Made by a program: the position numbers and the translations under genes | DNA from: Thelonectria olida | Lineage: Eukaryota; Ascomycota; Sordariomycetes; Hypocreales; Nectriaceae | Assembly: GCA_020736575.1 (NCBI GenBank) | Contig: JAGPYM010000053.1 | Span: 62,001 to 126,000 of the forward strand | Length of the DNA stretch: 64,000 bases | Direction: 5' to 3' | Shown: in pieces, positions 17,911 to 36,015 of the stretch | Position numbering within the stretch: the first letter of the stretch is position 1 | Layout: each line of letters opens with the position of its first letter | Notes under the pieces: generated by a model | Seen by the model: only the letters and a program-made list of their open reading frames with translations | The model's database searches: none | Told to the model about the DNA's origin: nothing

Positions 17911-18189
17911 ATTCTCTGTACCCTAGCACATTTGTATTGGAAGGACTTGACCAGTCAAGACCTCGTCGACCCGACGCCTTTTGCGGTCGTTCGTTGTTTG
18001 CGTTGGGACAAGATCGCTTGGGCGATTCAGGGGCGGCTCGATTCGCGCATCATTAGGAACTAAGGTTCATATAAAGTCAGACACCGAAGTTTGCGCTTTG
18101 TCAGGGCCTAAGGCTTTGCTCTCTAATGGTTCGCTTCGACCCATGAGTCTCTAGCTTTTAACGAGGGTCCGATCTGCGGATGGACCTAT

Positions 18190-18720
18190 GGAGGCTGTTT
18201 ATATTGTAAATAGGTTAAGATTGACTTAGTTTAAGTATAATAAATATAGTTTTAAAAACGAATTAGTACAAATCTTAAATAAGTAAAAATAATAAAACTA
18301 GGAGAAATAGTATTATAATAATTAAAATTAAATAAATTAAATAAAAATATAATTAATTAATTATATATTTACTTATTTAAATATTTATTATTTATTAAAA
18401 TAAGTTTAGTACTAGCATATAATAAAAGTTAATATAAGTAAAACCCAGCCTTGTATCTTTTATAATAAGCTTTTCTATAAAGTTTATTATTAATTTTTAT
18501 ATAAAAATTCTTATTTAGTAAATTTTTCTTATAAGTAGAAAAATATATAAAAGAGTTAATATAATAATAAAAATTACTAATTGTAAAGATTTAAATATTT
18601 ATATAATATTAAAAATTAATAACTATTAAAAAAATCTTAATATATATATATATATATATATATTATCTATTTTTAAATCTAACTACTCTTTCATTTATAG
18701 CAGTTTTTACAACTAATATT
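18190..18720. repeat. AT-rich island with a (TA)n tract
   Basis: About 500 bp are composed almost only of A and T, with stop codons in every frame and an uninterrupted TA dinucleotide run near 18639-18662. Both flanks return sharply to balanced composition. Such islands usually mark old repeats mutated by repeat-induced point mutation (C to T). No coding remnant can be read inside. Confidence 0.6.
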
Positions 18721-18782
18721 AATCGAGTGTGCGAGCCGAGATGTAATAGCCGAGTCCGTTACATGTGCAAATTCGTACAGCG

Positions 18783-19561
18783 CTACAGGCGCGATCGCAA
18801 GTAGTTGAGGAATTGTCTCAATGGCTTCTCCTGCAGGTCCTCGTCGCAGCTACAACTCTCAACGTGCTGGAAGAAACCGCTCATATACACAAATTGCATA
18901 TCGCAAGTTGGGCATTGAAAGTCGAAGTCGGGGTCGTCGCACGTGTACGAGTCGGACTGATGGCAGTCGAATGCTACATCAACGACAAAGTCAAGATCCG
19001 CGCCGGATTCACAAGTCCCGGCTTCTAGATGCAACATCATTGCCGAATGTGAGACGAACTTTCTTGGGCACCCGAAGCACTCGACTCTCTTTTCAAGATG
19101 GGTCTTGTTGTGCTGACAGAATGAGTCAAAGACTGAACCGGCTAGTAAGATTTCACTTGACTTACATTTTCAAGATTTGAAAAGCTACTGAAGTACCGGT
19201 CACACAATTCACATTTGTTGTGCGTGTCAACGTCGTGCTGGGCTAGCTCGCCTGCGTTACTGAAGCGAAGATCACACGGAACGCAAATGTTATGGACCGC
19301 CTCCAAATGATCATTTAGCTGTTCCTCAGAATCGAAATCAGACTCATGAGAACAGTTGTAGCAGACATGGTGCCGGGGAGAGTCGATGATGTGTTGCTGT
19401 TTTGCGTGGGCACGGGGGAAGTGTTTCTGACAGCGCATACAGTACGTCAGCGAGTGCTGACTTTGCAAATGCTGCTGCAGGGAGTCCCAAAAAGAGAAGG
19501 ATATGTTGCAAGGCTTGCAGTTCTCCATCCCGGTTCTAGTTGGATGCAATAAAACCGTCAA
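18783..19561 (-). CDS. C2H2-type zinc-finger protein
   Basis: Two exons, 19561-19166 and 19112-18783, joined by a 53-nt intron (GTAAGT...CTGTCAG), give 241 aa. Finger-like units follow in order: C-KPC-x12-H-x4-H, YCMRC-x12-H, VCYNC...H-x4-H, ICVPC-x12-H-x4-H, KCELC-x12-H-x3-H, ECFGC...H-x-H, and FQCPTCDMQF...H. Spacing varies as in fungal multi-finger proteins of unknown function. The start could be the ATG at 19561 or the internal MENCKPC at 19528. It is likely a nucleic-acid or protein-binding protein. The acidic C-terminal part (DPDFDF, ESCSCDEDL) is unusual. Confidence 0.65.
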
Positions 19562-25095: not shown

Positions 25096-25968
25096 ATGTC
25101 GAGCAGGAACACCTACATCCTCGTTCCCGATCTCACGACACCGCCACCGCCCGGCGGGCCCATCTCGCTCGGCCACATTCTTGAGGACCCAATGATGTTG
25201 GAACCTCTGAATGTCGGAGCGGAGCAACGCCTGGAGATCTCCTCAAACGAGATCTACGGCCCGCACAAGATGGACGGTTTCACGGCCACACGCAGGGACC
25301 TGCTCCGAGGCAAATTCGGCATCTGGGCCAAATTCCTGGCCACCGTCTTCGGTGTGGGCGCGCACGCCAACGTCAGCTACGAGCGTGACGATGACACTGT
25401 TTACAAATTTGACTACCTAGAGACGACGTTTTTCAACCCCTCCAAAGACTACCTCCGATCGAGCATGACGGTGCCGGTGGTGCGGGCCTACATGCGTGCC
25501 GCCAAGTTTGCCCTGCCCGTCTACATGGTTACAGGCATCAAGGTTGGCCGGGGTGTCGCCGTCCAGTCGTCACACGAGGTCGGCGGTGGTGTCAATGTGG
25601 CTGTCGGCATCGGACACCCCGGCGCGCCGGCCGCGGGCGGTCCCGAGATGGAGCTGACGTCGAAAACCGCGAGGGGTTTTGCCTTCACCCGGGGAGATGA
25701 CTGCCTCGTGGCATTGCGACTGAAGAAAATCACATACAAGAGTCGTATCGTAAAGTACAAGACGGAGACCAGGGGTGCGACCATGCAAGACGGCTCAGGC
25801 ACCGTGGAGGAGGACGAGGTGCCTGAGCTAGAGTTGGGTGATGGTGCAGCTGGTGATGTTACTCTGGACGACTTTGATGATGAGATGAAGATGGCCGACG
25901 GGACCGCTTTCGACGACGAAGGCGAGTCCATTTGGATTGTTCCTGCCTCGGAGGAAGAAACGTCTTGA
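25096..25968 (+). CDS. Fungal gasdermin-like pore-forming protein (HET-Q1/RCD-1 type)
   Basis: An intact intron-free 290-aa frame. The N-terminus (YILVPDLTTPPP) leads to GKFGIWAKFL (72-81), amphipathic strands YKFDYLETTFFNPS (103-116) and PVYMVTGIKVGRG (141-153). It then has a Gly/Ala/Pro loop and KKITYKSRIVKYKTE (210-224). Length, motif order and the missing signal peptide fit fungal gasdermin-like proteins. Those proteins insert into the plasma membrane after proteolysis removes a short C-terminal inhibitory tail. Here the last ~54 residues (237-290) are strongly acidic and could be that tail. The S8 protease gene lies tail to tail 57 bp away and a CHAT protease gene 4.2 kb further, the arrangement known for gasdermin-protease incompatibility loci. 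Family membership is by motif and context. Confidence 0.75.
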   Translation: MSSRNTYILVPDLTTPPPPGGPISLGHILEDPMMLEPLNVGAEQRLEISSNEIYGPHKMDGFTATRRDLLRGKFGIWAKFLATVFGVGAHANVSYERDDDTVYKFDYLETTFFNPSKDYLRSSMTVPVVRAYMRAAKFALPVYMVTGIKVGRGVAVQSSHEVGGGVNVAVGIGHPGAPAAGGPEMELTSKTARGFAFTRGDDCLVALRLKKITYKSRIVKYKTETRGATMQDGSGTVEEDEVPELELGDGAAGDVTLDDFDDEMKMADGTAFDDEGESIWIVPASEEETS

Positions 25969-26025
25969 GAATTGCTAAGTTTCAACCATGGCTCACATGT
26001 AGGTAGCTAGGTTTCTACCACGGCG

Positions 26026-29000
26026 CTATAGTCTTTCTTTAATCTTACCCCAGATTGTCCTCTCGTCTGCCTTCCCATTCCATAGATTCCATGGCGCAAC
26101 ATAATCATAGTCTTGTCGTTGTTGCGGCGCCATGAGTCTAAAGACACCTTTCATCCCTTCGTATGAACGCAGCTTGTTGCGCTGAGCTAACGTGAGTTCT
26201 TCTTCGCTCTGCAGCCAGTCAGCTAGGTCCATAATGTTGGCCGCGATGCCGGCTGCAATGGGGGTTGAGTAAGATGTTCCCGTCTTGAAGACCTCCTCGT
26301 CGCCCGAGAAGCCACATGGCACAGCGACTCCAAGCGTGCTGAAATTGTCACAGTTCCGTAGCGGCGTAGGGTCGACCTCGCTCTCGTTTCCGTTTCCATC
26401 AGTGGCGTGGATACAAAAGACGGTTTCTGCCTTGGCGGGATACGTCCTCTCCTTGTTTCCTCCGTAGTTTGAAGCCGCAGCAAATACCGCTTTTTTCATG
26501 GCGTACGCATCCGTGACGGCCTTTTGCATCTCATCATCCCAATCTGAGTCATCATCCAACCCGAATGACATGGATATGATGTCTGCTTCAACTTCATTGA
26601 GAGCCCATCGAAGGGCCTGGACTGACAACAACGCTGGTTAACAAGCCGTGGCACCAGCCAGAAGCGACAAGAATACTCACCGCGGAAATCTTCTGGTCTT
26701 GGATAGTAACCGTCTTCTCGCTTGATATCTTCCCCACGTAGACGTCAGCTTCAGGGGCTACGGTGAGAAGCAGTCCGACAACATGCGTTCCGTGGCCATC
26801 GTCATCATGATCAGAACCCTGAGTGAAGTTCTTTTTCTCTCGGATGGGATCTTTATAGCCCCTATTCTCCCCCTTTCTGGAATTCTCTCGTATCTTGCGT
26901 TTCAGCAACCGGATGTTCGCATCGCTATCGTTCAGGCCCGTATCCAAGACCGCAATCTTTACTCTTGGGCCTCCTTTCACCCGATGAATGTAGTCTTTTC
27001 GAAAATTGTCGAGACTCGCCAAGAATGTTTTCGCAAATTGTTTCCTGATACCTTGTTAGATAGGACTGATCGAAACTTGAGCATTGACAGATGGTGGGAG
27101 TCTAACTTTTGGTCCGGAACGTGAAGATGGCAGTCGCTAAACATGACAATACCCCGTGAGGCTGCAAACCCTGAACTTGGCCTGGGATGACAATGTCTCA
27201 CAGGCTTGGTTAGGCGGTTTCGAGAAGGGCCTCTGGATGGGCTTCGAGGAGGTCGACTTGTAGTATCAGGCTGTGCACACAGCAGTCGGGTACTTGGCAG
27301 CGAGTTCCGACCTGAAGTGGGATAGACGGCTGCACGGGGTCGGCTTGTCGTGGCGGTCCTTGCATCTCGTGTGTTTGGATGACGGCCGAGAGAGCTCGAG
27401 GGTTTTGAAAGCCCTGATGAAGGCCTTGCACGGTTACCTTGTGCCGATAGGCTGCTTGTTTTCGAATCATTTGTCCTGGACCGTCCTAAACTAGTAGTGG
27501 TAATCCGGCAAGTCTCTTTCAGTAGAACCTGTCCCATGGCGCTGGAGTTCTGCGAAAGAGATTGATGCACAGGCTGTGCATGCGCATCTGCCGAGGGCAG
27601 AGAAGCTTTTTTCTTCAAGTCCAAGTCTCGTGTTCCGAAAGCTGTTTCTGGGAAATTTCTCACTTCAAGCTCTAAAGGGTACAAGATTTTCTCGAGAATG
27701 ACTTTCCGACATGCAGCCTCCTGGCTATCTCCCGGGTGGTTTAACGTGTGCTCCCGCATCCATTGCGGAAATTTCAAGCATCCGTTAACTGCGTCGGCGT
27801 AATGCAGAGTGAGCTGCTCCTTCTTCCACTCGTCAAAGTGAGATTTGAGAGTTTTATAGAGACTGGGCCTTTTGTTGATCTCTTTGGTTATGTTGATGCT
27901 TTCCCCTTTCTCCATCTCCATTAGTAGCCTTCCAAAGGATAGAATCAACGGATAGTTGTGTTTGGGATCACGAATGTCCGACTGGTACCCAGCTTCCGAC
28001 GATAGAAAGCATGAGAGATACGGTTGGTGAATGTTGTACACCTTGTCGGTCTCGTACATGAAAAACAGATGTTTTGAAGCCCAATCCCTCTGTATCCAGG
28101 GGCCTTGATACAGCTGTAGAAGACTCTGGGCGAGTGTGACGGCTAAGATTCTCTTATGAACATCCGGGAATGTGTAACGGTCCTTTAGGAGCCCCTCCTC
28201 TAGAAGAAAGGAGAGTGAAATTGTGGGATCTGCTTCGGGATGATCTGGTTCATCTTCAAAGTTCGATTTATCCAGAAGTTGATTTCCACGGACAAATATC
28301 TTGATGACTTGCTGACAGTCGTAGGCTTTCTTTGCGAGCTTACAGATGTCGTTGATGATACAATCGGGCGATTCTTGCTTTGCTGGAAGGGAAACTCTGG
28401 AGATGGTGAGCCACTAGTTCAGCGGCCTAACACTTGGCTAGGGTAAATGATGCTACTCACTCGGGATCCGGGATATTGTAATGGACTTCTCGGGATCCGG
28501 GATATTGTAATGGACTTCTTGCCAATCGCTTGCATCCGGACAAGTCCCCAAGAGCATGTTTAGTTCCACATGACGACCGATTTTCCCCAGTTCGGGATAA
28601 TTCTTCAGATGCAAAAGTGACTTGTGTTTCGAGCTCTTTGCCGTGCAAGTTGTTAGGTGATGTTCTAAGGCGTGGAATAAGACGTTAGAGCAGTTCCAGA
28701 AGGGAGCACTGAACTGAGTCCGAAGGACTGATTTCGAGGCTGTTTTGGACAGTGGCTCTTTCGTTGACGGAATATGGTGCTGCAAGATCTTCCCAACCTC
28801 TTTGATGAAGGTCTCGACCGAACGCCGGGTGGCTTTGAACGCGACACGTGTCTGGGTGAGGCAAAGGAAGCGAAAATGATCGTTGATAGACAAGCCCGAA
28901 TTCTTCATTGAAAAGCTCAATGCTGTGAGCTTGGGATACGTCTCGTTGAGTTCAACGAGCGGTGTAAAGGTCTGAAAGAGGGTCAACTTTCTGGGCATGA

Positions 29001-29495
29001 TATGCTCAATACAGACAAGAGACATGCATATTAGAGGTTGGTTAGTGTAGGGGGTTTCATGACGGCTGAGATGAGACGGAATGGGGGCAGGGAAAGAGCT
29101 CATTCAGCACTAGAATGATGGGGAGTTGGCGGAGATGATTTCTGTGTTCCACTGACCTCATCGAGAAGAATAGTCTCATCGTTGATCTTTTGACTGGTGA
29201 GGTCCTCAAGAGCTTGAAGGAGAAACTCGAGTTGCTCCGTGAGCTTGTCGAAGATATCGTCAGAGAGAACAAGGTCCTGGTTGATGTGCAACGGGATCTC
29301 GTTGATGTATTCCCTTAAGAGTGCACCGGTTTCTTGGACCGCAATCCGTTCCGCGTCATTCGAACTTGCAGGCGACCAGGGGAGTTCGGATGCAAACAAG
29401 GGAAAGATGGCCGTGAAAAGCTGCCAGTGGCTTGATTTCAACATGACGTCTGGGGCGCCGAGGAAGGATGCTCTACAATCGGGAGAGCATTCCAA
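26026..29495 (-). CDS. DUF7580-subtilisin (S8) protease, HET-Q2-like, with a frame-shifting duplication
   Basis: Five exons on the minus strand: 29495-29157, 28971-28461, 28396-~27070, ~27022-26691 and ~26627-26026. Exons 1-3 encode a helical DUF7580-type region (FWNCSNVLFHALEHHL; DICKLAKKAYD; ILAVTLAQSLLQLYQGPW; LILSFGRLLMEM). A long Ser/Arg/Pro-rich linker follows. The C-terminal ~290 aa are a subtilisin domain with AVLDTG (Asp codon 26944-26942), GHGTHVVG (His 26794-26792) and GTSYSTP (Ser 26274-26272), so the triad is complete. DUF7580-S8 proteins include the activators of fungal gasdermins. Exon 2 carries a 29-bp tandem duplication (28462-28519) that shifts the frame into exon 3. Use of an AG two bases after the normal acceptor would rescue it. 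Function is therefore uncertain although the protease domain is intact. Confidence 0.7.
28462..28519. repeat. 29-bp perfect tandem duplication in the S8 gene
   Basis: Two identical adjacent 29-bp copies (starting CGGGATCCGGGATATTG) lie at the 3' end of exon 2, right at its splice donor. One copy gives a phase-2 donor that matches exon 3. Two copies change the phase, because 29 is not a multiple of 3. Confidence 0.85.
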
Positions 29496-30159
29496 GAGTG
29501 ACTACTGGCTGAGGCAACTCGGCAAGGATACGTCTGAAGAGCGGCGAGAGGGGGGGAAATGCGGGAACTCAAGACCGCCTCGGAGCCTTGGCGGGTCGAG
29601 CGCGACAACAGCCAAGTTGACAGTTGATGGATGGGGTTCTTGGATGAGAACGGGGTGCAATAGCCGGCATCCAGCCAATCCCTTAGATTCCGGCACGCCA
29701 CGCCGATGCGGACGATAAGCTGAGGCCGAAAACGGTTATCCGGTCGAGCCAAAGGTAACGATCTGACGCATCCTTTCGCGCTGTCCAATTCATGCATGCT
29801 ACGTCACTGCGGTTGCGGCTTCAAAGACGAATGGGCCACAGTGTGTTTTATTTCTTTCACACTGAGGGGGGTAAGCTGCGTTGGTCTCGAAGATCAAGAG
29901 TGATTTTTGGTGGCCACACAACACCCCGACTGACTGAGTCCCAGCCGTCTGATCACTTCTCACTGCCCAGGGGCAGCACTTCGCAGCCTACCCAATATTC
30001 TATTTATCCGCTTGTGCATGGCGACATACTGCCGCGACTCGTGAGAATCTTGCAACAGGATTCCAGTAGCTTCAGAAAGAAGCAATCGCATTATCGTGAG
30101 TCCGATCTAGATTGCATGGCGCAAAGTTGCGTACTGACTGGCATTTAGCTAAGGCAGTC
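29496..30159. other. Divergent upstream region between S8 and CHAT genes
   Basis: About 0.66 kb between the 5' ends of the minus-strand S8 gene and the plus-strand CHAT gene. No coding frame is supported. A shared bidirectional promoter is likely from position alone. Confidence 0.4.
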
Positions 30160-33100
30160 ATGGCTGCTACCACTGAAATATACGATCTTTCCAGGCAATG
30201 TGAGAAGACATTCCTTGGCATGTTTGATATTCCAAAGGCGAGCAGTTTCGTTGTCATCGAAGTTTTGTATCAACAATTCGCACAATGGGCATCCTACCTA
30301 GGAGTATTCGCCCACGAGGCCATGTCCTTGGATGCCAGGCTAATACACAGTGACTCACTGCGGAATTTGGTTTTACAATTGCTAGCGATAACAAATAGAA
30401 ATCTTACTCGAGGTGAGTCCAGCATAAAGCACCGAGCCTTGCTATCTACTTCAAGTCACTCATCGCTTTACTCTACCCAGTCATGAAACTTGAGCGGGAG
30501 CAACCCGACCTCACAAAGGAAACGCATCCAAGCTCTATCCAGGATCAAATGGATGAACAAACCGGTGAAGGGGTATCCTCTCCTCTGATCGAATCTTTGC
30601 ATGCCCTGGAAGCCGCCGTAGATGGTCTGCATCGCCTAGGTGTGGCGATACGTCAATCATCATCTTCCAACTTGACCCAGAGAATTAGCTCCTTCATTGA
30701 GAAGAATGACGACGGCGTGTTTGAAAACCTCGTTCTTTTTCGAATTAAGCATGAACTCATTGATCGGGCTAAGGAAGGAGGCGGAGAGGGAGCGCCATTG
30801 TCACTTTGCAAACAACTGGCCGTGTCCATTTCCTCCAGGTATTTTGGGCTCATGTACCGTCGAAGTCACCAGAGGAAGTTAGAGACGAACCGTGAGGTGA
30901 CACCTGTTGCAGTGGATGTGAATCAGCTGGCAATCCCGAGCCCGAGTACCCCCAGTCAAAGACTCAGTCCTGGTCCGCGACCCAAACACACAACACCGTC
31001 TCCAATCTCGCCACTTATCAATCACCTCATCGCCGACCACTCCGTGTCTGCTCCAACTATGCCGAATTCAAAAAAGGCGTTGCGAAAGTACGCATCTTCT
31101 AGGCAATCCACCGCGGGAGGGGCCTCGCTGGTTTCCGTTCAGTTGAGAGACGTCAAATATCCCGAGCCTCCGAAAGTCAATTCTGCAACCAATAGGGCGG
31201 TCTGTCCATATTGCACCCATCCTCTAACGAACTCAACCTTGGCAGACAAGAGATTATGGGAGTAAGTCGTGGATCGGATTCTATAGACTATCCTCCTGTG
31301 GCAGGTCTAACATTGTCTAGGCGCCACGTCAGTAACGATCTCCAGCTTTATGCGTGTATTTCGGAGGAATGTCTCGAGCCATCTCGATTATTTGCTCGCT
31401 TTGACGACTGGGCCAAGCATATGGAAGAGCATTCTTCACGGTGGGCGGAAGAGATTCACAAGCCCCTCCGCTGGTATTGCGATACGGATCACGAGGAAAT
31501 CTACTTCGATAGTGAAGGCGAAATCGATCAACACATCATGGATAAACACCCTGACTATGACACTGAGTCCGAAGTTGCTGAACTCAAAGAGTGGTGCGAA
31601 ATCAAGCGGACGAGGCCGCCGTACACATGCCCTATTTGCAACTGCATACCCCAGGAAATAGCATTGATCGCACCGGAGCTCGTTCAGGATCCTTCGACCA
31701 GGTCGTCCATGGAGCCGAGTGTTGAACTGTCGTCTCAGACAGGAGATGATCGTGAAAAAGAACTCCGAACGAAGTTATCTCATCACGTAGCCTCTCACCT
31801 CAAACAGCTTGGTTTATGTCAATAACCTATCTGGACGATGAAGAGGATGGGTCCCTCATCAGCAGACATGCCTCAAATGGTGCTGACGAGGGAAGATTCC
31901 TACTAAGCGAATGGGGGGAAGATCTGGATCCGGATTTCAAAGACTATACAGTCCCACGGGCTCCAACACCCATGGATGAGAAATTCAACCTAGACTGGAA
32001 CAGGGTCAAGGATTTCTCCCTCGGTCTAAGCCATGACCAAGAGCTGAGCGACATTGGCCGTGCCATCGAAATTGCTCATACCGAACTGAGCGTTACGCCT
32101 CTCGACAGTCCACATAGGGTTTTTCTCTTGATAGAATCTGGTTCCTTGCTCAGCAAACGATACGAACAGACCGGCATGATAGAGGATCTTGATGACGCTA
32201 TCAAGGTCGTGAATATGGCAGTAGATGATATGTCTCCAGACCACCCCGCCCTAGCTGGTGCCTTGGGCGACCTTGCAAAGCAGCGTCACATGCGGTTTGA
32301 GCTGACCGGCTTGACAGAGGATCTTGATCACGCTATCGAGATTGCGGCCAAGGCAGTGAAGGATTTACCTCAGGATCACCCTGATTTTGCCAGTCTGCTG
32401 GGTAACTTTGGATACTGGCACATGGAGCGATATGAACACATTGGTTCCATGGCTGATCTTGCAGATGCTATTAAGCTTATTAGGATGGTGCTAGACCGGG
32501 CACCAATGTATCATCCTGACCGAGCGCGCTGGCTGGGGCATCTTGGAAACTGCTTTGGCAGACGATTTCAGGTAACAGGGTCGTATCCAGACCTCGATCG
32601 GGCTATTGAGGTTACCAGAGAAGCATTAGGGGAAGCTCCAAGCGATCATCCTAGCCGAGGAGCTTGGCTGGTGGCTCTTGGAAATCAGCTTGGTATGAGA
32701 TTTGAACGAAGAACCGAGTTACAAGATCTCGAGGAGGCAATTCAGATGACTGCTCAAAGTCTCGACGCAACGCCGAACAACCACCCCGATCTAGCGTATC
32801 GATTAGAGAATTTTGGAAGTCGACTCGGGCAGAGGTTTGAGCGAATGGGAGAGATGCATGACATCGATCGAGCAATTGACCTTGCCAGCTTGGCCTTGGA
32901 CAAAACGCCGCGTGACCACTCCGATCGAGCCTGTCGATTGGAGAGTCTTTCGAACAAGCTCGGGCAGAGATTTAAGAAAACAGGAGAGAAAGGCGATATC
33001 GATCGAGCAATTGAGCTTGCCGGCTTGGCTTTGGACACAACGCCGCGTGACCACTCCGATCGAGCCTGTCGATTGGAGAGTCTTTCGAACAAGCTCGGGC

Positions 33101-35091
33101 AGAGATTTAAGAAAACAGGGGAGAAAGGCGATATCGATCAAGCTATTGAGTTTGCTGCTTTAGCCGTAGAAGCAACGCCAAAAGACCACCCCGATCTAGC
33201 CCGTCGATTAGAGAGTCTCGGAAATCAATGCGGCCGGAGATTTGCTGACGCTCTCTGTCTCGAAAAGGATCCCATGAAACACCGATTCTTCAGAGTCTTC
33301 AGTCAGATGGAGTGGATAGGAAAACTTCATTGGGCGGGTGATGAAATCAGCTGGCAATCTGAAGCCACCGGGCAGAATGAAGACCTCCAGCGGTCCCTTT
33401 CCTGCTTCGAGGAAGGATGGATGTGCCAGAATGCTCCTCCAATTTTACGGATCCGTCTGGCTTGGTGTGCTGCCAGCCTTCTCGCCCTGCTATCAAAGTG
33501 GGAAGAGGCAAGCCATCTTTTGTCGGCCGCCGTGCATCTTCTCCCAACTATTTGCCCGCCGTCGTTACAATATGAGGATAGAGAACACATCCTCTCGCAG
33601 TTTACTGGGATTTGCTCCATAGCCGCGGCCGCTGCTCTCAATGCAGGTAAGGGCACCGAGCATGCACTCCAGTTACTCGAAGCAGGCCGCGGCATCATCG
33701 TCGACCAACTGTTCCAGGCTCGGAAGTCTCAGAAAGACCTGTCTGAACTCCGACTACACCACCGTGACTTGGTGGAAGCATTCGAAAACATTCGAGAAGA
33801 CGTGGATTCTTTTTCTGCTGAGAGACGGCTTCCACCTTCAGCTACACGAGGGGAATCGCTAGATAAGCAACGGCGGCTCGCGGACCCCCCGGACCTCCTC
33901 GATATTGTGCAAAAGATCCGCCGCCTACCCGGGTTTGACGACTTCCTCCTTCCTGCCCAAGATGACTTTGCGCTAGCCGCAGATCCAGATCCAGCGATCG
34001 TCTTGAATGCAAGCCCTTATCGGTGTGATGCATTCATCGTTGAGCCTCACCAGACTACGGCCGTGGAGTTACCTCAAGCATCTCTGGAAATACTCGAGAA
34101 ATACCACGAGTCAGGTGCGAATGTACTCGAAGAGCTCTGGAACAGCGTCGCGAGCCCCTGCTTGCAAGCATTGGGCTTTGAACAGAGTCCTGCTGATGGG
34201 AACTGGCCTCACGTGTGGTGGATTCCAACGGGACCGTTTAGCAACGTGCCGATCCATGCTGCAGGACGACATGCCGAGGGGTCGACAGACACAGTACTTG
34301 ACAAAGTCATGTCCTCCTACAGCATTTCCCTCCGAGCCCTGATATGTGCGCGCAGACAGAGTGCTCAGATGTCTCCATCTCAGGATCCAAGTCAGGAGTC
34401 TGGGCGTGCCTTAATCATCGCTGCCGACGAGGTGCCTGGTATGCAACGCCTTCCATTCGCATCGAGCGAAACGCACTTGGTGAAACAAATTTGCCCGCTG
34501 CTGAATTTGAGCACTGTCGAGCTACCGCATGGCAATCGGGCGGAAGTGCTTACCCAGCTACCCCAGTGCCAAATATTCCATTTTGCTGGCGTTGCAAGGA
34601 CTCGTCAAAGCAATCCTTGGAGAAGCAGCATATATCTGGCGAATGGGCCGGCCGATCCACTAACTGTAGCAGATATCTGCAACTTGAGACTCGATGCTCA
34701 GGGGAGCTCGCCGTTCCTTAGCTATCTCTCGACCTGCGATGCTGCTGGGATGAATCTGAACAGCTCAGTTGATGAGCAAATCCATTTGGCTAGCGCTTGT
34801 CAAGTAGCTGGATTTCGACATGTCATCGGAACGTTCGGGTCGGTGCATGATGAAACTTGTGCTGACGTGGCGAGGGGGTTTTACCAAGCAATCCTAAGTG
34901 AAGGCATGACAGACCGCGGAGTGTACCGAGGACTGCACCGAGCTACTATGATGCTTCGAGACAAGGAGGTAGCAGAGGGAAGTTTCCGCACTGGATCTTC
35001 CAAGCCTCATCGTAAGGTGATAGCTTTGGGCGAGGATGAGGATCCTACGTATCCCAGCACATGGATTTCCTTTGTTCACTTTGGAGTTTAA
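30160..35091 (+). CDS. C2H2-type/TPR/CHAT protease protein with an apparent one-base frameshift
   Basis: Exons 30160-~30413, ~30481-31261 and ~31321-35091. The N-terminal helical part is followed by an AcuF-like C2H2-type region (CPYC...H-x-C; YACISEEC...H-x3-H; YTCPIC). At 31816 the frame ends (LGLCQ stop) and an ATG overlapping that stop opens a 1091-aa frame that continues the same protein type. It carries about eight TPR-like repeats of ~45 aa (DHPDxAxxLxxLGNxLGxRFExTG) and a CHAT domain: WWIPTGPFSNVPIHAAG, IFHFAG (His922 of the second frame) and LSTCDAAG (Cys974). CHAT is a caspase-like protease fold, and TPR-CHAT genes linked to gasdermins are known activators. The ten-base overlap of the two frames could be a mutation, an unrecognised intron, an assembly error, or truly two genes. 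Confidence 0.7.
32776..33180 (+). repeat. Near-identical 135-bp TPR-coding repeats
   Basis: Within the CHAT gene, units starting at 32911 and 33046 are almost identical over their first ~100 bp (starting CGTGACCACTCCGATCGAGC). A more diverged unit precedes them at 32776. The 135-bp period equals 45 codons, one TPR module. Confidence 0.75.
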
Positions 35092-35719
35092 TATTTTAAA
35101 AATTAGAAAAATAATATTTAAGTTTTTATTAAAATATTTTAACTTGATCAAATTATTTCCATTCAAAAGAGATCTAATCAGGTGTTAAATACAAAATAGT
35201 ATATATATACTGCCCAATTGTGAGCCCTATTAAAAAGCTTATTGTGACCGATACAAACGCCAGAGTTTGGCCTGTATTGACCTCTATTGTGTGCCTTGAA
35301 TATCGGCTTTTTGACCCGACACTAATACTCCGTATATATACTGCAAATGGAGCACTGTTTTGTTTCACTTCCTCGGAGCTTAGATTAAAGTCTGAAGCAG
35401 CGGGTGTGGCCTTGGTAATTCTCAAGCAGCAGCAGTATGGAAAAAGCTTATCGGACACTTCCAAGCTTGCATTGCAAGAAGTGCAGCAGCAAAAAGTCCA
35501 TGACTATTGCAACATTATTTCATTACTCTCACGCGCTTCAGAGTAAGCTTGCAAGTTTTTAGGACTTATCGTTCGAGGATGTACTAACTTACCAGCCTAT
35601 TATCAATGCAACACCACGCTTTCTATTCCCGCTGCAGATTTCTATAGCAATTCCAACAGCCTGCACTAAATTCCACGAGCTTATAGAAGATGGCTATTTC
35701 CTTAATTCTTGTGACAGGA
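35092..35719. other. AT-rich downstream flank, no supported gene
   Basis: The CHAT stop is followed by ~130 bp of AT-rich sequence. A 108-codon frame at 35220-35546 (+) has no recognisable features, and its composition suits chance. Confidence 0.35.
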
Positions 35720-36015
35720 ATAAGAGAAAAAGAAGGACGAGGAAGATGGGGATTGAGGAACAAAGAGGCAAGGAGTGAACGAAAGAATCGAGGGGAACGA
35801 AGAGAATAATAGAAAGCCGAGTAACAATAAGCATCGAGAGAGTTGAGGAATCGAGTAACAATGGGAGTCGAGTAACAATGGGAATCGAGGATCAAAGAGA
35901 ATTAACGGTACAAGGAGAACAAAATAGACAAGAGGAACGATTAAAATGAAGGGAGCAAGGCGACTCAAGGTAACAATGGAAGCAAAGGAAACAGGTGAAG
36001 CAAGGGGAACAAGGG
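35720..36015 (+). repeat. Purine-rich degenerate minisatellite
   Basis: About 300 bp of nearly pure A/G on the plus strand, built from short units such as GAGTAACAATGGGA (twice in tandem near 35852-35880), GAGGAACAAAG and GCAAGGGGAACA. Strand asymmetry is extreme; the minus strand is C/T-rich. No protein is supported. Confidence 0.55.

What the first reader, a model, noticed from the sequence alone, without database searches (positions are those of the whole stretch)
25096..35091. Gasdermin-like pore former linked to both an S8 and a CHAT protease
A gasdermin-like gene lies tail to tail with a DUF7580-subtilisin gene, which is divergent to a C2H2-TPR-CHAT gene. Known fungal gasdermin loci pair the pore former with one S8 or CHAT protease, which removes an inhibitory tail and triggers regulated cell death (het-Q1/het-Q2). 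Having both protease types in one 10-kb block suggests two inputs to one executioner, or a locus undergoing protease turnover.
Basis: partly seen in the sequence, partly recalled or inferred. Interest (0 to 1): 0.9.

Follow-up and report, generated by a model that had tools for sequence, protein, structure and literature searches.

The report
Fungal gasdermin cassette with dead CHAT
In a fungus, a gene for a pore-forming cell-death protein sits beside the enzyme gene that probably switches it on; the supposed second switch enzyme next door has lost a key active-site residue and lies behind a zinc-finger-like partner gene that may be the sensor.

Summary
The locus is real and lies in Thelonectria olida. 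25096-25968 encodes a fungal gasdermin (profile match to the RCD-1 pore, E 1e-17). Tail to tail with it lies a DUF7580-S8 protease gene with an intact catalytic triad; this pair is also adjacent in Fusarium decemcellulare. A second protease input through CHAT is not supported here: the CHAT domain has Val where 116 of 120 listed homologs have the catalytic His, and its frame is broken off from the C2H2 part upstream. What recurs is the C2H2 gene. Of 16 C2H2-family hits in this genome (window included), 13 lie within 10 kb of a DUF7580 domain (expected 0.15), 10 of these head to head; 6 of 9 gasdermin loci have one. At C24, splices that join C2H2, DUF7580 and S8 in frame are possible. In two loci DUF7580 carries PNP_UDP instead of S8. 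I read the locus as gasdermin + S8 activator + C2H2 sensor with an exchangeable C-terminus, here TPR plus dead CHAT. A gasdermin between intact CHAT and S8 domains exists elsewhere in this genome (contig C80).

The parts
25096..25968 (+). fungal gasdermin, 290 aa, intronless; pore domain about residues 10-225, then a 65-residue acidic tail (net charge -20)
26026..29444 (-). DUF7580-S8 serine protease gene, 1009 aa in a five-exon model (29444-29157, 28971-28461, 28382-27107, 27044-26681, 26616-26026); likely gasdermin activator
27655..28713 (-). DUF7580 domain match (read across an intron)
26942..26944 (-). S8 catalytic Asp codon (D726 of the model)
   Evidence: Asp in 72 of 72 listed homologs (own NCBI copy included); codon place worked out from the exons
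26792..26794 (-). S8 catalytic His codon (H776)
   Evidence: His in 72 of 72
26272..26274 (-). S8 catalytic Ser codon (S928)
   Evidence: Ser in 71 of 72, one gap
28460..28519 (-). perfect tandem duplication of 29 bp across the end of exon 2; makes that splice junction uncertain
   Evidence: NCBI's protein (P0137, 'partial') starts just downstream
30160..31825 (+). C2H2-family gene, 512 aa, three exons (30160-30412, 30481-31261, 31321-31825), divergent from the S8 gene
31756..35091 (+). TPR-CHAT open frame, 1111 codons, out of frame with the last C2H2 exon
32863..33218 (+). 135-bp TPR units, 88% matches over the array; one neighbouring pair 93% identical
34591..34593 (+). Val codon at the CHAT catalytic His position
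34735..34737 (+). CHAT catalytic Cys codon, retained
   Evidence: Cys in 117 of 120

Best explanation
This is a fungal gasdermin cell-death cassette with one working protease. The gasdermin is the executioner, held off by its short acidic C-terminal tail. The neighbouring DUF7580-S8 protease is the activator that removes this tail; membrane pores and cell death follow. The head-to-head C2H2 gene is the third component, a sensor or regulator of the DUF7580-S8 protein, whose C-terminal part differs between loci (TPR frame; kinase-like; here TPR plus CHAT). The CHAT domain here has lost its catalytic His and its frame link to the C2H2 part, so it is not a second gasdermin protease but a degenerate or non-catalytic module. 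Shown: gene order, homologies, active-site state, recurrence of the pairs. Inferred: cleavage, pore formation, sensing by the C2H2 protein, order of action.
For: Gasdermin: phmmer to RCD-1-2 E 2e-9; profile A1 E 1e-17; profile A2 matches RCD-1, the HET-Q1 pore and bacterial gasdermins. S8: triad kept, as in listed homologs. CHAT: His replaced, against His+Cys in 5 of 5 other non-remnant own-genome CHAT loci checked; no joining splice found. C2H2: 13 of 16 hits within 10 kb of DUF7580, 10 head to head, 15 of 16 next to DUF7580 or S8; possible in-frame fusion C2H2-DUF7580-S8 at C24 with strong donors at each junction; conserved C/C/H/H positions in 10 of 10 aligned pieces.
Against: No expression, cleavage or killing data. 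AlphaFold gave a useless model (pLDDT 40). A perfect 29-bp duplication at the end of S8 exon 2 could impair splicing: with the strong donor, only one of three acceptors tried keeps the frame, so the S8 gene might itself be damaged. Linkage in other species rests on one of 14 non-self gasdermin relatives, some of them on contigs too short to tell. At C80 and C77 no C2H2 hit was found, and C57:273895 has a C2H2 hit but no S8, so the trio is not universal. Some C2H2 hits carry in-frame stops (introns or decay). The window C2H2 pieces match no Pfam family. At C24 the two later junctions have several possible donors or acceptors, so fusion is possible, not shown.
Confidence: 0.66

Rival explanations
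1. Two protease inputs to one executioner: both S8 and CHAT cleave the window gasdermin in response to different signals.
For: Both domains lie within 10 kb. S8 and CHAT are each associated with fungal gasdermins, and a TPR-CHAT protease activates one in P. anserina (review passages). At C80 intact CHAT and S8 frames flank one gasdermin.
Against: The window CHAT lacks the catalytic His, its frame is cut off from the C2H2 part, and no CHAT homolog above 43% identity other than itself was listed while the gasdermin has 57-67% relatives.
Confidence: 0.07
2. Protease turnover: an older or failed CHAT partner is decaying while S8 stays; the TPR-CHAT frame is a pseudogene in progress with no present role. 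(Overlaps with the best explanation, which leaves the state of the CHAT open.)
For: Lost His, frame break; a more decayed TPR-CHAT remnant 17 kb from another gasdermin at C57 (Cys position Arg, in-frame stops).
Against: 1111 codons remain open; the active-site Cys and TPR units are kept; the CHAT frame overlaps the end of the C2H2 gene, which is a recurrent partner.
Confidence: 0.3
3. The pseudo-CHAT is an active non-catalytic part of the sensor (pseudoprotease or decoy) in a C2H2-TPR-CHAT receptor; the frame break is a base-calling error or a strain-specific lesion. (Overlaps with the best explanation.)
For: The catalytic Cys and a long open frame are kept; by eye the end of the C2H2 frame and the start of the CHAT frame line up with the uninterrupted ends of paralogs.
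Against: Only one assembly was seen; nothing shows expression; the frame is broken in it.
Confidence: 0.2
4. The CHAT neighbourhood is chance; only gasdermin and S8 belong together.
For: CHAT genes are common here (37 loci); across 9 gasdermin loci 0.13 chance neighbours are expected.
Against: 2 of 9 observed (P 0.007); the TPR-CHAT frame overlaps the end of the C2H2 gene, itself linked to DUF7580 far beyond chance.
Confidence: 0.1

Closest known systems
HET-Q1 / HET-Q2 (Podospora anserina)
   Same: Fungal gasdermin with a short C-terminal tail plus an S8 protease (278-aa gasdermin, cut at F238, 40 residues removed; passages of PMC10989679).
   Different: HET-Q2 is 388 aa, the window S8 about 1009 aa with DUF7580; het-Q1 and het-Q2 are alternative genes at one locus (PMC12881547), here both are side by side; a C2H2 gene is added.
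P. anserina gasdermin with TPR-CHAT protease, two-gene cluster
   Same: Gasdermin next to a TPR-CHAT gene (PMC12881547); C80 in this genome looks like it, with an S8 added.
   Different: In the window the CHAT catalytic His is missing, and the CHAT frame follows a C2H2 gene, not the gasdermin.
RCD-1-1 / RCD-1-2 (Neurospora crassa)
   Same: Closest solved structures of the pore domain (8jyz).
   Different: RCD-1 acts by two alleles without proteolysis; the window protein has a longer tail and a protease neighbour.
Bacterial gasdermin-protease operons
   Same: Pore former encoded beside a protease; profile A2 matches 7n51/8sl0 at E 6e-6.
   Different: Separate fungal genes, other sensor domains.
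Fungal NLRs with S8, CHAT or PNP_UDP effector domains (PNP_UDP as an NLR effector is recalled)
   Same: Same effector repertoire joined to repeat-bearing sensors (S8 and CHAT: PMC10197012).
   Different: No NB-ARC/NACHT appeared in the frames scanned; effector (DUF7580 gene) and repeats (C2H2 gene) sit in two paired genes.

Membership tests
Fungal gasdermin | Homology to the gasdermin pore domain | tested here: met
   RCD-1 E 2e-9 single sequence, 1e-17 profile; HET-Q1 pore 2e-14 and bacterial gasdermins 6e-6 with a wider profile
Fungal gasdermin | Predicted gasdermin fold | tested here: inconclusive
   AlphaFold pLDDT 40 with 15 sequences; not used, no fold search run
Fungal gasdermin | Short removable C-terminal tail | tested here: met
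   65 residues after residue 225, 22 acidic; removal itself not tested
Fungal gasdermin | Membrane pores and killing | not testable with these tools
   needs bench work
Gasdermin-linked S8 protease (HET-Q2-like) | S8 domain with Asp/His/Ser triad | tested here: met
Gasdermin-linked S8 protease (HET-Q2-like) | Neighbour of a gasdermin, also in a relative | tested here: met
   8 of 9 own loci; one other species, F. decemcellulare, out of 14 non-self gasdermin relatives
Gasdermin-linked S8 protease (HET-Q2-like) | Uninterrupted gene | tested here: inconclusive
   an in-frame model exists, but the exon 2/3 junction is disturbed by a 29-bp duplication
Gasdermin-linked CHAT protease | CHAT domain | tested here: met
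   Pfam E 6e-26
Gasdermin-linked CHAT protease | Catalytic His-Cys dyad | tested here: not met
   His position is Val; His in 116 of 120 listed homologs (of 206 found), one of the four others being this gene itself; His and Cys in 5 of 5 other non-remnant own-genome CHAT loci checked; that these residues are the dyad is recalled
Gasdermin-linked CHAT protease | Linkage conserved in relatives | tested here: inconclusive
   120 of 206 hits listed, best non-self 43% identity, none with a contig length equal to one of the 14 gasdermin relatives' (compared by eye)
C2H2-DUF7580 gene pair (named here) | C2H2-family gene within 10 kb of DUF7580 | tested here: met
   13 of 16; a further hit at E 0.004 without a DUF7580 neighbour was dropped, with it 13 of 17

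The most novel reading that the evidence does not exclude
Fungi use a modular two-gene receptor without an NLR: a C2H2-family sensor with an exchangeable C-terminus, encoded head to head with a DUF7580 adaptor carrying an exchangeable effector (S8 or PNP_UDP). S8 versions often bring a gasdermin as third gene, giving a protease-gasdermin death cassette. In the window the sensor's C-terminus is a dead CHAT protease, perhaps kept as a decoy or pseudoenzyme.
Probability: 0.45. Interest if true: 0.72.

Novelty: new variant of a known kind. Interest (0 to 1): 0.57.

Why it matters
Which stimuli activate the fungal death sensors is called a major open question in a 2025 review (PMC12881547, passage). 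A third gene that recurs with the DUF7580 effectors gives a concrete candidate sensor to test. The locus also warns that a CHAT hit beside a gasdermin need not be a working protease, while C80 offers a case of two intact protease types around one gasdermin.

Tried and rejected
AlphaFold of the gasdermin with 15 sequences: pLDDT 40, rejected, so no fold search was run. A reading of the 29-bp duplication as a certain gene break was rejected after an in-frame splice was found. A reading of the RS-rich linker of the S8 protein as non-coding was dropped when P0139 showed a similar linker. Pfam naming of the C2H2 pieces failed: no family for the window pieces, only weak DUF7565 at C57. A motif scan meant as a control matched neither CHAT site in four own-genome CHAT loci (L016-L019); it was replaced by an alignment, which shows His and Cys in all four. 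Paper searches, of which I saw listings: DUF7580 (0 papers); gasdermin+DUF7580+C2H2+fungi; HET-Q1/HET-Q2; fungal gasdermin+zinc finger+cluster+protease; CHAT+gasdermin+three-gene+fungi; fGSDM/HET-Q1. Neither these listings nor the passages read (section) describe a C2H2 partner or an S8+CHAT gasdermin locus. The key primary paper (Clave 2022, PNAS) is not held, so absence from print is not shown. C155 and C132 gasdermins gave no gasdermin hit in the PDB on their own; C155 is joined through C24, C132 through a small profile; C132 was found by looking beside an S8 gene and was left out of all counts. Beside the S8 at C57:839072 no gasdermin was found in the 3 kb read.

Full report
Setting. The window is part of contig C115 (168,679 bp) of a 52.5-Mb genome. 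The CHAT and S8 frames match NCBI proteins of Thelonectria olida at 98% and 96%, each on a contig of exactly 168,679 bp, so the organism is T. olida.

The gasdermin. 25096-25968 is one 290-codon frame. It has no Pfam family, but phmmer finds the RCD-1-2 pore subunit at E 2e-9. A profile of 15 sequences finds RCD-1-2 at 1e-17. A profile that includes own-genome paralogs finds RCD-1 at 4e-20, the HET-Q1 pore at 2e-14 and bacterial gasdermins at 6e-6. Beyond residue 225 lies a tail of 65 residues with net charge -20, which fits a removable inhibitory tail; a review reports that HET-Q2 removes 40 residues of HET-Q1 (PMC10989679, passages). The AlphaFold model was useless. Fifteen proteins were found, one of them the window's own; twelve of the other fourteen are 57-67% identical.

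The S8 gene. Minus-strand exons give a 1009-aa protein with DUF7580 and S8. Asp726 and His776 and the oxyanion Asn are kept in 72 of 72 listed homologs and Ser928 in 71 of 72, with one gap (the gene's own NCBI copy is among them). Its Fusarium decemcellulare relative, FDECE_13548, sits on a contig of the same length, and with the neighbouring locus tag, as the gasdermin relative FDECE_13549. This is the only such match among 14 non-self gasdermin relatives; tags and contig lengths were compared by eye, and some of those contigs are too short to tell. A perfect 29-bp duplication (28460-28519) overlaps the end of exon 2. With the strong donor, one of three acceptors tried keeps the frame, and NCBI's protein is marked partial and begins just after this place. 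So the gene is probably, not certainly, intact.

The CHAT. The TPR-CHAT frame (31756-35091) scores well as CHAT. In an alignment with the 120 listed of 206 homologs, the His of the dyad is present in 116 of 120; the window has Val, and one of the four exceptions is this same gene in NCBI. The Cys is present in 117 of 120 and in the window. In the own genome, five CHAT loci aligned as a control (four of the best Pfam hits and C80) all have His and Cys; the C57 remnant has His and Arg. The C2H2 frame ends at 31825, after the CHAT frame has opened at 31756; a strict splice-site scan of 31700-31960 gave no joining intron. By eye the end of the C2H2 frame continues in the CHAT frame in the way paralogs continue uninterrupted, which suggests a former fusion broken by a frame shift, or an assembly error. 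No CHAT homolog above 43% identity other than itself was listed.

Own-genome comparison. Whole-genome searches gave nine gasdermin loci, two of them from weak hits (E 0.003-0.004): the one at C57:636356 was confirmed by RCD-1 at E 4e-29, the one at C77 only by eye. A tenth (C132) was found by looking beside an S8 gene and is not counted. Eight of nine have S8 within 10 kb (expected 0.12), two of nine CHAT (expected 0.13) (uniform placement, so clustering is ignored). The two CHAT loci are the window and C80. At C80 a TPR-CHAT frame (267081-269249, +), a gasdermin (269370-270242, -; HET-Q1 E 3.5e-12), an ankyrin-repeat frame (270625-271944, +) and an S8 frame (272010-273125, +) are packed together. 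CHAT His and Cys are present, and the S8 triad motifs are present by eye. The ankyrin and S8 frames can be joined in frame only with weak donors, so they may be one gene or two. This is a better two-protease locus than the window.

The third gene. The window C2H2 piece found eight other pieces; two more queries brought the family to 17 hits, of which one at E 0.004 was dropped. Of the 16 left, window included, 13 are within 10 kb of DUF7580 (expected 0.15, P 3e-24), 10 of these head to head with 2.1-3.8 kb between the matched domains; two more are next to S8 and one next to a gasdermin. Some hits contain in-frame stops. Six of nine gasdermin loci have a C2H2 hit within 10 kb; at C9 a frame matching the N-terminal part of such genes lies at the contig end. 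None was found at C80 or C77. In ten aligned pieces nine positions are invariant, among them two Cys and two His spaced as in a C2H2 finger (the spacing rule is recalled). C-terminal parts differ: a TPR frame follows at C94 (joins possible only with weak donors), a weak kinase-like match at C155 (E 0.002, below the curated cut-off), TPR-CHAT in the window. At C24 a 49-nt intron with good signals joins the C2H2 frame in phase to the next exon; strong donors then allow in-frame joins into DUF7580 (several acceptors) and on into S8. A fused gene is thus possible, not shown. At C89 and C90 the DUF7580 frame carries PNP_UDP_1 instead of S8.

Mechanism. Most likely the C2H2 protein senses or regulates, the DUF7580-S8 protein is the activated effector, and the gasdermin is its substrate. 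Order of action, cleavage and pore formation are inferred. The CHAT in the window sits where the sensor's variable end would be and cannot be expected to act as a His-Cys protease.

Known versus new. Reviews (passages of PMC12881547, of PMC10197012, and of PMC10989679; section 15 of PMC10197012) give about 60-63% of fungal gasdermin genes beside S8 and 17-19% beside CHAT, call them two-gene clusters, mention kinase-like fusions to the proteases, and once two- or three-gene clusters. I saw no mention there of a C2H2 partner or of S8 plus CHAT at one gasdermin; the primary paper was not available. The gasdermin-S8 pair is a new member of a known kind; the C2H2-DUF7580 module makes it a new variant.

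Noticed in passing
L028 (G000 C80:267081-273125): Gasdermin flanked by an intact TPR-CHAT frame and an intact S8 frame preceded by ankyrin repeats: the clearest two-protease gasdermin locus seen.
   Followed up: partly
L049 (G000 C57:652355-654601): Decayed TPR-CHAT with in-frame stops and Arg at the Cys position, 17 kb from a gasdermin and downstream of a DUF7580-S8/C2H2 pair.
   Followed up: partly
L020 and L022 (G000 C89, C90): DUF7580 in one frame with PNP_UDP_1 instead of S8, head to head with the same C2H2 gene family.
   Followed up: partly
L032/L033 (G000 C24:150116-160067): One gasdermin between two DUF7580-S8 genes; for one of them an in-frame fusion with the C2H2 gene is possible.
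   Followed up: partly
L050 717-1553 (G000 C132): Divergent gasdermin-like frame beside a DUF7580-S8 gene with a divergent C2H2 gene; too distant for a PDB match on its own.
   Followed up: partly
window 28460-28519: Perfect 29-bp tandem duplication across an exon end of the S8 gene, apparently recent.
   Followed up: partly
window 32863-33218: Nearly identical 135-bp TPR units, as in fast-evolving repeat receptors (comparison recalled).
   Followed up: no
L030 (G000 C57:273805-277079): Gasdermin piece next to a HET-like gene (motif recalled), with a C2H2 gene 4 kb away and no S8.
   Followed up: no
window 18001-19000 and 35001-36000: AT-rich dips (GC 0.31 and 0.40) on either side of the locus.
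   Followed up: no
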